DNA from: Auritidibacter sp. Marseille-P8566
Lineage (GTDB): Bacteria; Actinomycetota; Actinomycetes; Actinomycetales; Microbacteriaceae
Reading direction: 5' to 3'
Length of the DNA: 64,000 nt
NCBI GenBank assembly: GCA_945895375.1
Contig: CAMDEE010000001.1
Span: forward strand, 124,001-188,000
Shown here: piece by piece, positions 42,336-50,392 of the stretch
Position numbering within the stretch: position 1 is the stretch's first letter
Layout: every line of letters starts with the position of its first letter
The notes under the pieces: generated by a model
The model's input: the letters and a program-made list of their open reading frames with translations, nothing else
The model's database searches: none
Told to the model about the DNA's origin: nothing
Made by a program: the position numbers and the translations under genes

Positions 42336-43733
42336 CTATTTGCGGCGGTTTGAAATAATCAAAACTAACTCTGATGCAAGACCTGTGTAAGTATTTGGCT
42401 TAAGCATCAATAAGCGATCTTTGGCATCCTGACCGATGTTCAAATCCTGAACAAACAGCGCTAAGTCTTCACTGCCAATTCTTCTACCGCGAGTTAACTC
42501 TTTGAGAAGTTGGTAAGGATCTGAAATGTCACTTCGTCCAGCAGCAACTTCAGCGCGAATAACCGTTTGAATTGCCTCAGCTAGTACTTCCCAGTTCTCA
42601 GCTAGGTCAGCATCTAGGACAGCGCTTGATAGTTCAACTTCAGCCAAGCCGCGAGTCGCGTTATCTATTGCTAGTAGCGAGTGGCCAAGACCTAATCCAA
42701 TGTTTCTCTTAGCACTTGAGTCTGTTAGGTCGCGCTGCATCCTTGAGGTAACAAGAGTGCTTGATAGTGAATCAAGAATTGCATTTGACAGTTCAAGGTT
42801 TGCTTCGGCATTCTCAAAACGAATTGGGTTAACTTTGTGAGGCATTGTTGATGAACCTGTTGCTCCAGCGACTGGAGTCTGCTTGAAGTAGTTCATCGAG
42901 ATGTATGTCCACATGTCTGTGCAAAGGTTGTGCAGAATTCTGTTGAACAAAGTAATTGCTGAATAAAGTTCAGCTTGCCAATCGTGAGATTCGATTTGAG
43001 TGGTTAGGGGATTGAATTTCAAACCAAGGGATTCAACAAACGCTTTTGATTCTTGGAACCAGTCAACCCCTGGTGCTGCAACAACGTGAGCAGACCAGGT
43101 ACCTGTTGCTCCTGAGAACTTACCTAAGTATTCTGCATTTTCAATACGAGTGATTTGTCTTTTGAGTCTGTGAATAAACACCGCTAGCTCTTTACCCATG
43201 GTTGTAGGCGTGGCTGGCTGACCGTGAGTTCTTGCAAGCATCGCAGAGTCTTGATACTTAACTGCCATTACAGATAGAGCTTCTACTAATGCATGTGCCT
43301 TTGGTAACCAAACATCAGTAACTGCATCATGAATGGTGATTGCGTAAGAGAGATTGTTAATGTCTTCACTTGTGCAGGCGAAGTGGGTTAGTTCAAGTAA
43401 GTCTTCTCTACCAAATTTGGTAAGTCGATCACGCACAAAGTATTCGATTGCTTTAACGTCGTGACGAGTCTTCGCTTCAGTATCGGCTAACTCCGCAACG
43501 TCAGCATCACTAAAGTCAATGACCAAACTCTTTAGCTTTTCTTTGAGAACGCCATCGATTGGAGCGTTAGTGCCTAGCAGGTTCCTGTTGGCTAAGAAAA
43601 TCAACCACTCGACTTCAACCAGGATGCGAGCTCTGTTTAGACCCGCTTCACTCAGGTGCTCACCTAGAGCGGCGACCACAGGTTGGTATCTACCGTCTAG
43701 TGGACTGATTGGCTGATTCGAAAGATTACTCAC
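42336..43733 (-). CDS. purB: Adenylosuccinate lyase
   Basis: SSTMPHKVNPIRFENAEANLELSN signature; PLDGRYQP. Confidence 0.95.
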   Translation of the reverse strand: MSNLSNQPISPLDGRYQPVVAALGEHLSEAGLNRARILVEVEWLIFLANRNLLGTNAPIDGVLKEKLKSLVIDFSDADVAELADTEAKTRHDVKAIEYFVRDRLTKFGREDLLELTHFACTSEDINNLSYAITIHDAVTDVWLPKAHALVEALSVMAVKYQDSAMLARTHGQPATPTTMGKELAVFIHRLKRQITRIENAEYLGKFSGATGTWSAHVVAAPGVDWFQESKAFVESLGLKFNPLTTQIESHDWQAELYSAITLFNRILHNLCTDMWTYISMNYFKQTPVAGATGSSTMPHKVNPIRFENAEANLELSNAILDSLSSTLVTSRMQRDLTDSSAKRNIGLGLGHSLLAIDNATRGLAEVELSSAVLDADLAENWEVLAEAIQTVIRAEVAAGRSDISDPYQLLKELTRGRRIGSEDLALFVQDLNIGQDAKDRLLMLKPNTYTGLASELVLIISNRRK

Positions 43734-43812
43734 ATGTCTATATTGCCCTGCTTTATGCACAGAACTCCCTTATTCGTAGGGTCTGTGACTAGAAATATTA
43801 GAGATTTCCATC

Positions 43813-43989
43813 ATGAACATTTTCAATAATCACTTGGCCGTAACCATCGCTCTGCTTAAACGCGCAGAACCTAGCCACACACTCTGGCGAGGACCCGCAG
43901 CCGACTCCTGTCGGTTGGAAATGCAGAAACTCCAACACCAGATGAGTTCGCTCATGTGGCAGATGCAACTGCTTGGGTTGATCCCATGA
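43813..43989 (+). CDS. 58-aa WXG100-like small protein (missing from ORF track)
   Basis: MNIFNNHLAVTIALLKRAEPSHTLWRGPAADSCRLEMQKLQHQMSSLMWQMQLLGLIP; W-R-G-PAAD between two helical segments; TGA overlaps ATG of next ORF. Confidence 0.65.
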   Translation: MNIFNNHLAVTIALLKRAEPSHTLWRGPAADSCRLEMQKLQHQMSSLMWQMQLLGLIP

Positions 43990-44759
43990 AGCCGGATGTC
44001 TGCACCCCACCGGTGGCCCCAGTGGTGGTAGTTGCCACTCACGAAGAGCTAGTTAGAAGCGCTAGAGACATGTGGCTAGTCGCCGTGAGCTTACTTACCG
44101 AACTCAACCCAACGAAGTTCACCACCGCTCCTTGGGCTGCTGCCAGATTCACCATCGAGCTACCTTTTCTCTTAGGCAAGCTCTGGCATATCCAACAGGG
44201 GCTGATCACATCAGCACATTCCTATATGCAAACCGAGACCATGCTCACAACCGTCCTAGAGACAATCAACGTTCCTGAACTTCTAAAGGAATTAGGTTCT
44301 TGGGCTGTCGAACTAGCTCCGGTTTTAAACCTGCCATTCGGTTTCAGCCAGCACGTGCCACCGGTGACAATCATGCCGCCAACTGATGTGAACATAATCA
44401 CTCAGCGGTATACAGAAACTACTTGGTCGGGGCAGCCGCTAGTGAGAGAAGAAACCTATGCGATGAGAAACGGCACAACCTCACACTGGTTCTATCTTCC
44501 AAAAGAAGAGGATTGGGCAGTTATCAATGGCCATGCACCGATGACACCAGAAGATAACCGCTTAGCGGATTTCATTAAATATCGAACAATAGGAAACGAT
44601 CAAGTGCACTTCGTTGGAATGAGAGATGGCGAAGTGATCATTCCGGATGCTCAAGTGCTTAACGATCACCAGGGCTTAGCTGATGGGGAAGTGCAGGTCT
44701 TTTCTATGAATGACCTAAAGGATTCTCAGAGCCTTGAAAAGTCCTCGACCAATGAATGA
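43986..44759 (+). CDS. Hypothetical protein with ESX/WXG-like helical N-terminus
   Basis: ATGA-coupled to 43813..43989; helical N-terminal ~110 aa with YMQTE (YxxxE); unknown C-terminal domain. Confidence 0.65.
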   Translation: MKPDVCTPPVAPVVVVATHEELVRSARDMWLVAVSLLTELNPTKFTTAPWAAARFTIELPFLLGKLWHIQQGLITSAHSYMQTETMLTTVLETINVPELLKELGSWAVELAPVLNLPFGFSQHVPPVTIMPPTDVNIITQRYTETTWSGQPLVREETYAMRNGTTSHWFYLPKEEDWAVINGHAPMTPEDNRLADFIKYRTIGNDQVHFVGMRDGEVIIPDAQVLNDHQGLADGEVQVFSMNDLKDSQSLEKSSTNE

Positions 44760-45140
44760 GAAAATGCTGATCACTATTGAGGCAAGAATTGCCCAACCTA
44801 GAGATTCAATTTCTAGTCCTTCGGAAGTGAAACCTTGGATTGTGAAGGTATCAGGGCTCAGCTGCTGGCTTATCCAGGCCACCAAAAGAAGTAGTGATCC
44901 ATTAATCACAAATGAGATCAGACCGAAGGTCAGAATGTATAACGGGAACGCGATTACCTTGATAACTGGGGCAATTATGGAGTTGATGAGGCCAAAAATG
45001 GCTCCAATAACCAACAAAGTAGCGATTAATTGCCACAATTCGTTGCCACCGTAAGGCTTTAGACCGATTCCTGGGATTATTGCTGAAACCAGCCAAATAC
45101 CCAGTCCGTTGATGATGGTGCTAACAAGAAAACGTTTCAT
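44715..45140 (-). CDS. YvlD/phage-holin-4-like (PF04020-type) membrane protein
   Basis: MKRFLVSTIINGLGIWLVSAIIPGI; LVIGAIFGLINSIIAPVIKVIAFPLYILTFGL. Confidence 0.85.
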   Translation of the reverse strand: MKRFLVSTIINGLGIWLVSAIIPGIGLKPYGGNELWQLIATLLVIGAIFGLINSIIAPVIKVIAFPLYILTFGLISFVINGSLLLLVAWISQQLSPDTFTIQGFTSEGLEIESLGWAILASIVISIFSFIGRGLFKALRIL

Positions 45141-45178
45141 GTGTTTTATTGTGCCACCCCTCAAGTAAATTGGTATCT

Positions 45179-46345
45179 GTGAACGCCGCATCCCCAGAAA
45201 TTCCTATGGTTCAACTCCTAACGGTTGAAGGCGATTTTATCGAGCCTCGAGAACATGCTGTGTATGGCGAGATCGTCCGATCGCTTCGAGAAGCAGACTT
45301 CCTAAAGTTCTATCGGGACATGGCTCGTATCCGTCGTTTCGACGAAGAGGCAACCGCACTTCAACGCCAAGGCCAAATGGGTCTTTGGGTTTCAGCAATT
45401 GGCCAAGAGGGAGCTCAGATCGGATCTGGCTACGGAGTCGGACCAAACGATCACATCTTCCCTTCTTATCGTGAACATGGAGTAGCAATCACTCACGGTG
45501 TTGACCTCATGTCAATCATCAAAATGTTTCGTGGTGTTAACCACGGTGGATGGAATCCAAAAGAAACCCGCTTCCACTTATATGCAATTGTTCTTGGTAC
45601 TCAAGCTCTGCACGCAACCGGTTATGCAATGGGCTTGAACTTTGAAGGTCTAGTTGGAACTGGAGATCCAGAAAAAGACCTAGCGGTAATTACATATTTC
45701 GGTGATGGAGCTACAGCTGAAGGTGACATCAGCGAAGCTTTCCTTTTCGCGGCAACTAATAACACTCCTCAAGTTTTCTTCTGTCAAAATAACCAGTGGG
45801 CAATCTCTTCTCCTGTTGGAACACAAACCAAGGTGCCTCTATATAAACGCGGTGAAGGTTTTGGAGTTCCTGGTATCCGTGTTGATGGTAACGACGTTCT
45901 CGCTTGTTATGCAGTTACAAAGAAGCACATGGATGATGCTCGTGCAGGTAGAGGGCCTTCACTAATTGAAGCTTTGACTTACCGAATTGGTGCACACACA
46001 ACTAGCGATGATCCATCGAAGTATCGTGACCCGGCTGAGGTTGCTGAGTGGGCTGCTAAAGATCCGCTACTGAGATTCGAGAAGTTCTTGCGTAAACAAG
46101 GGATTGGCCAGGATTTCTTTGATGAAGTAAAAGCTGCTGGAGATGAACTTGCTACAGAGCTTCGTGAAAAAACTTTTGTTATGACTGAGCCACCTCTTGA
46201 ACTTATGTTTGATCATGTTTACTCAGAACCTCATCCACTAATTGAAGAGCAGAGAGCGTGGCTTCAGGGCTACGAAGAATCCTTGGGTGGCCACACTTCT
46301 GCTAACAACGGTGACGACACCCCTAGCTACGGAGGAACTCGCTAA
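45179..46345 (+). CDS. pdhA: Thiamine-diphosphate 2-oxoacid dehydrogenase E1 alpha (PDH/BCDH)
   Basis: FGDGATAEGDISEAFLFAATNNTPQVFFCQNNQWAISSP; GTG start at 45179 inferred. Confidence 0.9.
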   Translation: MNAASPEIPMVQLLTVEGDFIEPREHAVYGEIVRSLREADFLKFYRDMARIRRFDEEATALQRQGQMGLWVSAIGQEGAQIGSGYGVGPNDHIFPSYREHGVAITHGVDLMSIIKMFRGVNHGGWNPKETRFHLYAIVLGTQALHATGYAMGLNFEGLVGTGDPEKDLAVITYFGDGATAEGDISEAFLFAATNNTPQVFFCQNNQWAISSPVGTQTKVPLYKRGEGFGVPGIRVDGNDVLACYAVTKKHMDDARAGRGPSLIEALTYRIGAHTTSDDPSKYRDPAEVAEWAAKDPLLRFEKFLRKQGIGQDFFDEVKAAGDELATELREKTFVMTEPPLELMFDHVYSEPHPLIEEQRAWLQGYEESLGGHTSANNGDDTPSYGGTR

Positions 46346-48723: not shown

Positions 48724-48758
48724 ATGCGTTCCCATGGAGGGAATTGGAAGGGGCAAAA

Positions 48759-49034
48759 TTGAATAATCAATCACAAGAAATCGAAACAAAGAGCAATCTG
48801 CCAATTTTGGCATTGGCCTTAGGCATCCTGGTTCCGCCACTCGGAGCAATCATGGGTCACATCGCGTTGAAGTCAATGAGCACAGGTGAAATCAGTTCAG
48901 TGAACAGAAGATTTGCAGTTGCAGCAGTTGCTGTGGGATGGATTTTGACTGGACTTATCCTTGCGGCGCTTTTTCTAGTGCAATTGCTTATTTGGGGGTT
49001 ACAGGCATTCTTTGGATCTCTTACATACAACTAA
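48759..49034 (+). CDS. DUF4190-like membrane protein, paralog 1 (TTG start inferred)
   Basis: LPILALALGILVPPLGAIMGHIALKSM-x-TGEISS; paralog of next ORF. Confidence 0.7.
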   Translation: MNNQSQEIETKSNLPILALALGILVPPLGAIMGHIALKSMSTGEISSVNRRFAVAAVAVGWILTGLILAALFLVQLLIWGLQAFFGSLTYN

Positions 49035-49091: not shown

Positions 49092-49355
49092 ATGAGTAAC
49101 AATTCAAATCAAAACAATGCAACAGAGAGTTCGCTCCCGATCTGGGCCTTGGTGCTCTCATTCCTTGCATCACCTGTAGGGGCAATTCTGGGCCACGTGG
49201 CTATGTCGCAAATGAAGAGCGGTCAGATCAGCTCTTCAAACCGAGGAATGGCTCTTGCGGCCGTAATCTTGGGTTGGACATTCACCGCTCTCGCCATTTT
49301 TCTGGTGCCGATTCTTCTTAGTTTGTTTGTGTTGATTGGGTTTACTGGCTCATAG
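49092..49355 (+). CDS. DUF4190-like membrane protein, paralog 2
   Basis: LPIWALVLSFLASPVGAILGHVAMSQMKSGQISS. Confidence 0.75.
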   Translation: MSNNSNQNNATESSLPIWALVLSFLASPVGAILGHVAMSQMKSGQISSSNRGMALAAVILGWTFTALAIFLVPILLSLFVLIGFTGS

Positions 49356-49420: not shown

Positions 49421-50392
49421 ATGAAGAAATCATTAGTAGCACTAGTTGCCGTAACTTCCCTAGCAATAGGCCTATCTGGCTGTTCATCAACAGAGTCAGC
49501 CGATACCCGACCTTCTGTTGTCGCCACAACCTCAGTCTGGGCTGATGTAGCCAGCCAGATCGCTGGCGATAAGTTCCAGGTCCTGGCCCTGATTGATAAG
49601 CCAACTCAGGACCCTCACTCATTCGAGGCATCAGCCAGAGATCAATTGGCCGTGTCTGAGTCAAGCATCTTCATTATGAATGGTGGTGGCTATGACGAGT
49701 TTGCATCCAAGCTTGCAAGCGCAGCTAACGTTGTTCCATTTGATGTGTACGAGAGTCACGAAGCTGCTCACGCAGATGAGCACGCTGGAGAGACTAAAGA
49801 CGAGCACGCTGGCGAAAGTGAGGATGAGCACGCTGGAGAGACTAAAGACGAGCACGACGGAGAGCACGCTCATGGACACGATGGCTCAGACCACATTTGG
49901 TATGACCTACATGTTGTTGAGGCAACTGCGTTTGAGCTCTCAAAGAAAATGGCTGAGCTTCAGCCAGAGAACAAGAATGTGTTTGATGAGAATTACACAA
50001 AGTTCGCGACTTCAATTGAAGAACTTGAAGAACGAGCGGCAAAGATCACAACAAAGCTTTCATACTTTGAAGCCCACCCTCTTGCAGCTCTCTTGTTCCA
50101 GGAATTGGGCTTTGAGAACCTAACACCAGAAGGCTTTGCTGAAGCTGAAGAAGCGGAACTAGAACCATCACCGCTAATCATGAATGACGCCAAGGAACTT
50201 ATCGGCGGCAAGAAAGTTAACTTTGTTGCTGTCAACCGTCAGGCGACCTCCACTTCTCTTGAGCAACTCATCGCTGTTGCTGAAGAGAACATGGTTCCTG
50301 TGTTGAACTTCGATGAGCTTCTGCCAGAAGGTTCTAACTACCAAGACTGGATGTCTGGAATCCTCGCTGAAATCGAAACAATAAGCAACTAG
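49421..50392 (+). CDS. znuA: Zinc ABC transporter substrate-binding lipoprotein (ZnuA-like)
   Basis: Lipobox LSGCSST; His/Asp-rich loop; IWYDLHVVEATAFELSKKM. Confidence 0.92.
   Translation: MKKSLVALVAVTSLAIGLSGCSSTESADTRPSVVATTSVWADVASQIAGDKFQVLALIDKPTQDPHSFEASARDQLAVSESSIFIMNGGGYDEFASKLASAANVVPFDVYESHEAAHADEHAGETKDEHAGESEDEHAGETKDEHDGEHAHGHDGSDHIWYDLHVVEATAFELSKKMAELQPENKNVFDENYTKFATSIEELEERAAKITTKLSYFEAHPLAALLFQELGFENLTPEGFAEAEEAELEPSPLIMNDAKELIGGKKVNFVAVNRQATSTSLEQLIAVAEENMVPVLNFDELLPEGSNYQDWMSGILAEIETISN
49775..49870 (+). repeat. Tandem repeat (48-bp period) encoding the His-rich zinc loop of ZnuA
   Basis: DEHAGETKDEHAGESE-DEHAGETKDEHDGEHA; GATGAGCACGCTGGAGAGACTAAAGACGAGCACG at 49775 and 49823. 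Confidence 0.85.

What the first reader, a model, noticed from the sequence alone, without database searches (positions are those of the whole stretch)
43813..44759. Translationally coupled WXG100-like mini-protein plus unknown 258-aa partner
The ORF track misses a 58-aa ORF (43813-43989): MNIFNNHLAVTIALLKRAEPSHTLWRGPAADSCRLEMQKLQHQMSSLMWQMQLLGLIP. It has a W-R-G motif between two helical segments, as in WXG100/ESX proteins. Its TGA overlaps the ATG of the next ORF (ATGA, 43986-43989), predicting coupled translation. The partner has a helical N-terminus with YMQTE (YxxxE, the ESX signal form) and a C-terminal domain I cannot assign. No EccC/type VII machinery is in the window. This could be a reduced ESX-like pair or effector, or a secretion-independent WXG fold in a streamlined genome.
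Basis: partly seen in the sequence, partly recalled or inferred. Interest (0 to 1): 0.72.

Follow-up and report, generated by a model that had tools for sequence, protein, structure and literature searches.

The report
Mini ESX-like pair, hydrolase domain lost
In a tiny freshwater bacterium (Rhodoluna), two overlapping genes encode what looks like a pocket-sized type VII secretion partner pair; throughout the bacterial family the larger partner carries a serine hydrolase, but in this lineage the enzyme part has been lost while the export-signal-like parts stay strongly conserved.

Summary
In detail: a 58-aa ORF (43813-43989) overlaps its partner by ATGA (partner 43986-44759, 257 aa). The pair is a core locus of the genus; the W-x-G turn of the small protein and a YxxxE motif in the partner are nearly invariant. 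Across Microbacteriaceae the locus sits between purB and a 4-TM protein/pdhA, and the partner normally ends in an alpha/beta hydrolase with a Ser-Asp-His triad. In one clade of 13 genomes, the window's included, that domain has shrunk to a remnant without the triad, while the WxG protein and the YxxxE helical domain stay under strong purifying selection. Profile comparison matches the small protein to the WxG half of WXG100 proteins and, more weakly, the partner's N-terminus to their YxxxE arm. The genome has no detectable EccD but has an EccC-like ATPase and one orphan WXG100 protein. Among listed genomes the pair accompanies the shorter class of EccC-like ATPase (114/114 versus 4/17 with only longer ones). 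Best reading: a reduced type VII substrate/partner pair whose effector domain was lost and whose signal module was kept for a non-catalytic role.

The parts
43813..43989 (+). mini-WXG protein, 58 aa; helix 2-17, WRG turn (25-27), helix 28-53
   Evidence: ORF; conserved with invariant P20, W25, G27, A29; pN/pS 0.16; AlphaFold helix-turn-helix; profile match to WXG100
43986..43989 (+). ATGA stop/start overlap, predicted translational coupling
   Evidence: ATGA in 12 of 13 copies of the clade, TTGA in one; 4-bp overlaps also in several remote members
43986..44759 (+). partner protein, 257 aa: N-terminal helical signal-like domain plus alpha/beta-hydrolase remnant
   Evidence: ORF; family alignment; model
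44025..44270 (+). partner residues ~14-95: helical hairpin with the YxxxE motif (Y80-E84, bases 44223-44237)
   Evidence: Y80 and E84 invariant in 23 sequences; pN/pS 0.15; extended HxxxD/ExxhxxxH pattern
44364..44705 (+). partner residues ~127-240: alpha/beta remnant of the hydrolase domain; the GxSxG position reads GMRDG, catalytic segments missing
   Evidence: alignment to intact homologues; triad absent in all 13 members of the clade; strands and helices in the model
42336..43760 (-). purB (adenylosuccinate lyase), divergent neighbour that marks the conserved locus
   Evidence: ORF; synteny across genera; name from sequence knowledge
44715..45191 (-). 4-TM Phage_holin_4_2 family membrane protein; convergent, its 3' end overlaps the partner by 45 bp
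   Evidence: PF04020, E 2.4e-20; synteny

Best explanation
The two genes are a reduced type VII (ESX-like) substrate/partner pair. The coupled mini-WXG protein and the helical N-terminal domain of its partner most likely assemble into a helical bundle that brings W-x-G and Y-x-x-x-E together, the bipartite signal that EccC/EssC-type ATPases recognise in known systems. In most Microbacteriaceae this signal is fused to a serine alpha/beta hydrolase, probably an exported esterase or lipase-like enzyme. In the window's Rhodoluna clade the hydrolase lost its catalytic core, most simply once, and the WxG/YxxxE module was retained under tighter selection, presumably as a non-catalytic EccC-dependent or envelope-associated heterodimer. 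Shown: ORFs, overlap, motif conservation, synteny, triad loss, monophyly, selection, co-occurrence with an EccC-like ATPase. Inferred: heterodimerisation, recognition by the ATPase, export, and the present role.
For: Partner family in 61/67 genus genomes and 21/22 high-quality ones. Y80, E84 and W25, G27 invariant across 23 pairs. Extended T7SS pattern HxxxD/ExxhxxxH: final hydrophobic 39/39, middle 36/39 (pattern from PMC3935865). Mini-WXG profile versus WXG100 profile: probability 81.6%, E 1e-5, score 31.2, against at most 11.6 in 40 column-shuffled controls and 16.4 reversed. Partner N-terminus aligns to the YxxxE arm of WXG100, score 22.9 against at most 14.1 in shuffles. Ser motif 27/27 and His motif 27/27 in intact members, none in 13 eroded members. 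Eroded clade one group on the purB tree, support 95/76, with intact sister G037. pN/pS of the N-terminal domain 0.15 in the eroded clade versus 0.53 in intact ones. EccC-like ATPase in own genome and in 21/22 high-quality genus genomes, with Walker A and B motifs in all 25 extracted. Pair presence tracks the shorter EccC-like ATPase, 114/114 versus 4/17.
Against: No Pfam or NCBIfam hit for either window protein. EccD was not found in the genome, with a working positive control. The ATPase matches EccCa far below its curated cut-off (119 versus 509 bits) and lies in no ESX locus. Two genomes with the pair show no clear ATPase (G128, G306), though both are fragmented assemblies. Foldseek matches of the small model to Esx proteins are weak (E 4-7) and the partner model has no significant match. 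The N-terminal part of the partner model has low confidence (block means 43-66).
Confidence: 0.62

Rival explanations
1. The pair is an intracellular heterodimer that is never exported: a WXG-type fold kept as a scaffold or as an allosteric regulator of the EccC-like ATPase or of a membrane partner.
For: No EccD found, EccB inconclusive; ATPase reduced to one module in most of the genus; catalytic domain lost in this clade while the helical module is kept.
Against: The YxxxE motif and its extended pattern, known as an export signal, are retained across the genus and in most other genera examined, and the ancestral architecture has the signal plus an effector-like enzyme.
Confidence: 0.24
2. 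The small ORF is mainly a translational leader that regulates the partner, and the WxG resemblance is incidental.
For: Short ORF with a stop/start overlap in all close relatives.
Against: Protein-level purifying selection (pN/pS 0.16); invariant P, W, G, A across divergent genomes; profile similarity to WXG100 far above shuffled controls.
Confidence: 0.05
3. The partner is a pseudogene in decay, and the whole remnant has no function.
For: The C-terminal tail (residues 181-235) evolves fast (pN/pS 0.63) and the triad is gone.
Against: All 13 ORFs are intact at saturated synonymous divergence; the N-terminal domain is more constrained than in intact relatives; the remnant still models as an alpha/beta unit at pLDDT 72-88.
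Confidence: 0.05

Closest known systems
PE/PPE proteins and LipY-type ESX substrates of mycobacteria
   Same: Helical signal domain with YxxxD/E, a WxG on the partner, and in LipY fusion to a lipase-type hydrolase (PMC3935865 lists the LipY and PE25 arms)
   Different: No PE or PPE family match for the window proteins; the WxG partner is only ~58 aa; no complete ESX locus; the enzyme is absent in the window clade
WXG100 (EsxA/EsxB) proteins
   Same: Helix-WxG-helix; profile match over WxG and helix 2
   Different: 58 instead of ~100 aa, no own C-terminal YxxxD/E arm, no PF06013 hit, and the partner is a larger protein
LXG effectors with Lap1/Lap2 targeting proteins (PMC9600955)
   Same: Small helical WXG100-like partner encoded directly upstream of the larger substrate; composite signal
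   Different: Firmicute T7SSb; Lap proteins ~100 aa; no LXG domain recognised here
TslA lipase substrate with TlaA1/TlaA2 (PMC10730906)
   Same: Hydrolase (phospholipase A) plus small helical partners
   Different: Reverse domain order in TslA; Bacillota; has a dedicated immunity protein
Abhydrolase_8 (PF06259, DUF1023) hydrolases
   Same: Best Pfam model for the intact partner of a larger Microbacteriaceae genome (19.7 bits, cut-off 20.5)
   Different: Below cut-off; genus members hit only other general hydrolase models, also below cut-off

Membership tests
WXG100 superfamily (PF06013) | Match to the curated model | tested here: not met
   0 Pfam families at E up to 10 for the window protein and 0 for three remote homologues; the own-genome PF06013 search found only the orphan WXG100
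WXG100 superfamily (PF06013) | Helix-turn-helix with W-x-G in the turn | tested here: met
   Model helices 2-17 and 28-53, WRG 25-27; W and G invariant in 23; profile-profile E 1e-5
WXG100 superfamily (PF06013) | About 100 aa with a C-terminal YxxxD/E or equivalent arm | tested here: not met
   58 aa without such a motif; the motif is in the partner
Type VII secretion substrate pair | YxxxD/E with HxxxD/ExxhxxxH on one partner and WxG on the other | tested here: met
   39/39 and 36/39; W25/G27 invariant
Type VII secretion substrate pair | EccC/EssC-type ATPase in the genome | tested here: inconclusive
   EccC-like ATPase with two P-loops present but far below the EccCa cut-off
Type VII secretion substrate pair | EccD membrane component in the genome | tested here: not met
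   EccD model matches 87/198 class genomes but not this one
Type VII secretion substrate pair | EccB membrane component in the genome | tested here: inconclusive
   no match in the genome, but no control genome matched either
Type VII secretion substrate pair | Heterodimer formation and ATPase-dependent export | not testable with these tools
   needs an experiment or a complex prediction
Active alpha/beta serine hydrolase | GxSxG nucleophile elbow plus Asp and His | tested here: not met
   Window partner lacks all three; intact relatives have them

The most novel reading that the evidence does not exclude
Streamlined Microbacteriaceae run a minimal type VII-like route made of an EccC-like ATPase and WXG-type proteins without EccD, and in one Rhodoluna clade its hydrolase effector was converted into a non-enzymatic, strongly conserved signal-only partner of the ATPase.
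Probability: 0.22. Interest if true: 0.78.

Novelty: new variant of a known kind. Interest (0 to 1): 0.6.

Why it matters
It points to an unannotated, family-wide type VII-like substrate locus, with a partner about half the usual WXG100 size, in bacteria not usually credited with such systems (for one streamlined relative, PMC6106888 states there are no type VII systems). If an EccC-like ATPase plus such pairs work without EccD, the question of the minimal machinery becomes testable in a 1.4-Mb genome. The eroded clade is a natural experiment in which the cargo enzyme was lost and the signal module kept.

Tried and rejected
Pfam and NCBIfam scans of both window proteins: no hits. The search for related loci with the broad alignment failed because no stretch was conserved enough; a narrower alignment worked. 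EccB search uninformative because no control matched. Foldseek on the partner model gave nothing significant. The small-protein PDB profile search was led by designed coiled coils; S. aureus EsxA was the first type VII protein, at E 0.8. Structure prediction accepts only window sequences and loci from certain tools, so no full-length hydrolase was folded, and a heterodimer could not be predicted. Promoter and terminator scans: nothing above shuffles. Paper search for WXG100 with Microbacteriaceae: no paper. Considered and rejected: leader peptide, whole-gene pseudogene. The apparent five-fold slowing of the pair relative to purB was cut to about two-fold after pdhA and the membrane neighbour were used as controls.

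Full report
Observation. The 58-aa ORF (43813-43989) and its ATGA overlap with the next ORF are in the sequence. The partner from ATG 43986 is 257 aa. Neither protein has a Pfam or NCBIfam match.

Conservation. The window lies in a 1.43-Mb genome of 99.8% completeness; close relatives are recorded as Rhodoluna sp. or as uncultured Micrococcales MAGs. The partner alone finds 23 of 67 genus genomes; a family profile finds 61 of 67, including 21 of 22 high-quality ones, mostly as a single copy. In 23 aligned pairs the small protein keeps P20, W25, G27 and A29, and the partner keeps Y80 and E84 among ten invariant columns. All 13 close copies of the small ORF, the window's included, are intact at near-saturated synonymous divergence, pN/pS 0.16. 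The overlap is ATGA in 12 of 13 and TTGA in one.

What the partner was. Most genus members, and the small-genome relatives read here, are 354-476 aa and carry a C-terminal alpha/beta hydrolase (sub-threshold hits to Abhydrolase, Cutinase and PE-PPE models). In 27 intact members the GxSQG elbow and a C-terminal HxxxxY are always present, and a strict (E/Q)HxxDxxP Asp pattern is found in 24. The 13 members of the window's clade have none of the three. In the alignment the elbow position reads GMRDG in the window and about 100 residues after it are missing. On a purB tree the 13 form one group (support 95/76; 94% of bootstrap trees), with the intact G037 as sister, so one loss is the simplest reading. 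The remnant still models as strands and helices (residues 127-240, block means mostly 72-88).

Selection. In the eroded clade the N-terminal helical domain has pN/pS 0.15 and the rest 0.46; in intact genus members the same N-terminal domain has 0.53. Relative to purB, the mini-WXG and N-terminal domain change 0.89 times as fast in the eroded clade and 4.2-4.3 times as fast in the intact clade. Controls show that part of this is baseline: pdhA shifts from 0.63 to 1.14 and the membrane neighbour from 0.92 to 2.08; the ATPase D1 domain shifts from 1.41 to 4.40. The extra tightening of the pair is therefore about two-fold, not five-fold.

Family-wide distribution. The profile matches 307 of 400 family genomes and 67 of 81 genera, mostly through the hydrolase part. 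Where the locus was read in other genera it is usually purB, then small ORF plus hydrolase, then the 4-TM protein, then (hisC) and pdhA-pdhB-pdhC, on the same strands. In larger genomes the small ORF often has W-x-S instead of W-x-G, such as WRSPA or WSSPA, and a YxxxE lies about 205-280 residues before the serine elbow in 13 of 15.

Type VII features. The published extended signal HxxxD/ExxhxxxH (PMC3935865) fits 39/39 at the last position and 36/39 at the middle one. hhalign matches the mini-WXG profile to WXG100 over the WxG and the following helix (score 31.2; shuffles at most 11.6), and the partner N-terminus to the YxxxE arm of WXG100 (score 22.9; shuffles at most 14.1). The small model shows helix-WRG-helix, with EsxEF, EsxA and EsxGH among weak fold matches. 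In known systems such a WxG plus YxxxD/E combination is a bipartite signal read by EccC/EssC (PMC9600955).

Machinery. The genome has FtsK, a second FtsK/EccC-like ATPase of 548 aa with two P-loops and N-terminal hydrophobic segments (EccCa 119 bits against a cut-off of 509), and one orphan WXG100 protein beside groEL. EccD is not found, while the model works in 87 of 198 class genomes. The ATPase is near-universal in the family (191/200). In larger genomes it lies beside MoxR/DUF58-like genes (named from sequence knowledge) and a zinc-ribbon/FHA protein. Among 131 genomes with listed hits, the pair is present in 114/114 with an ATPase frame under 1260 aa and in 4/17 with only longer ones (Fisher 8e-15; by genus 45/45 versus 4/11, p 1.4e-6). 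This list was truncated to the best matches and is not corrected for phylogeny. Two small-genome relatives without a hit (G078, G155) have a diverged ATPase.

Conclusion. The evidence supports a reduced type VII-like substrate/partner pair whose effector domain was lost in this clade. It is not a member of WXG100 by the curated model, and type VII membership is only partly met. Export, dimerisation and dependence on the ATPase are inferred from motifs, profile similarity and co-occurrence.

Noticed in passing
G000:C6 (L029:8162-8482): Orphan canonical WXG100 protein (106 aa) between a two-component system and groEL; WXG100 hits occur in 114 of 120 Microbacteriaceae genomes searched.
   Followed up: partly
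G000:C2 (L028:8130-9776, minus strand): EccC-like ATPase of 548 aa with two P-loops in the window's clade, about 320-420 aa with one P-loop in other genus members read, about 850-1100 aa in many larger relatives: looks like stepwise reduction.
   Followed up: partly
window 44715-44759: The 3' ends of the partner gene and the convergent Phage_holin_4_2 membrane-protein gene overlap by 45 bp.
   Followed up: no
window 49421-50392: Probable metal-binding lipoprotein of ZnuA-like appearance with a His/Asp/Glu-rich repeat segment (HAGETKDEHAGESEDEHAGETKDEHDGEHAHGH).
   Followed up: no
window 48744-49034 and 49092-49355: Two adjacent similar small membrane proteins with a shared GAI(M/L)GH(I/V)A motif, probable tandem paralogues.
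   Followed up: no
[quoted passage not shown] worth rechecking for this pair and the EccC-like ATPase.
   Followed up: no
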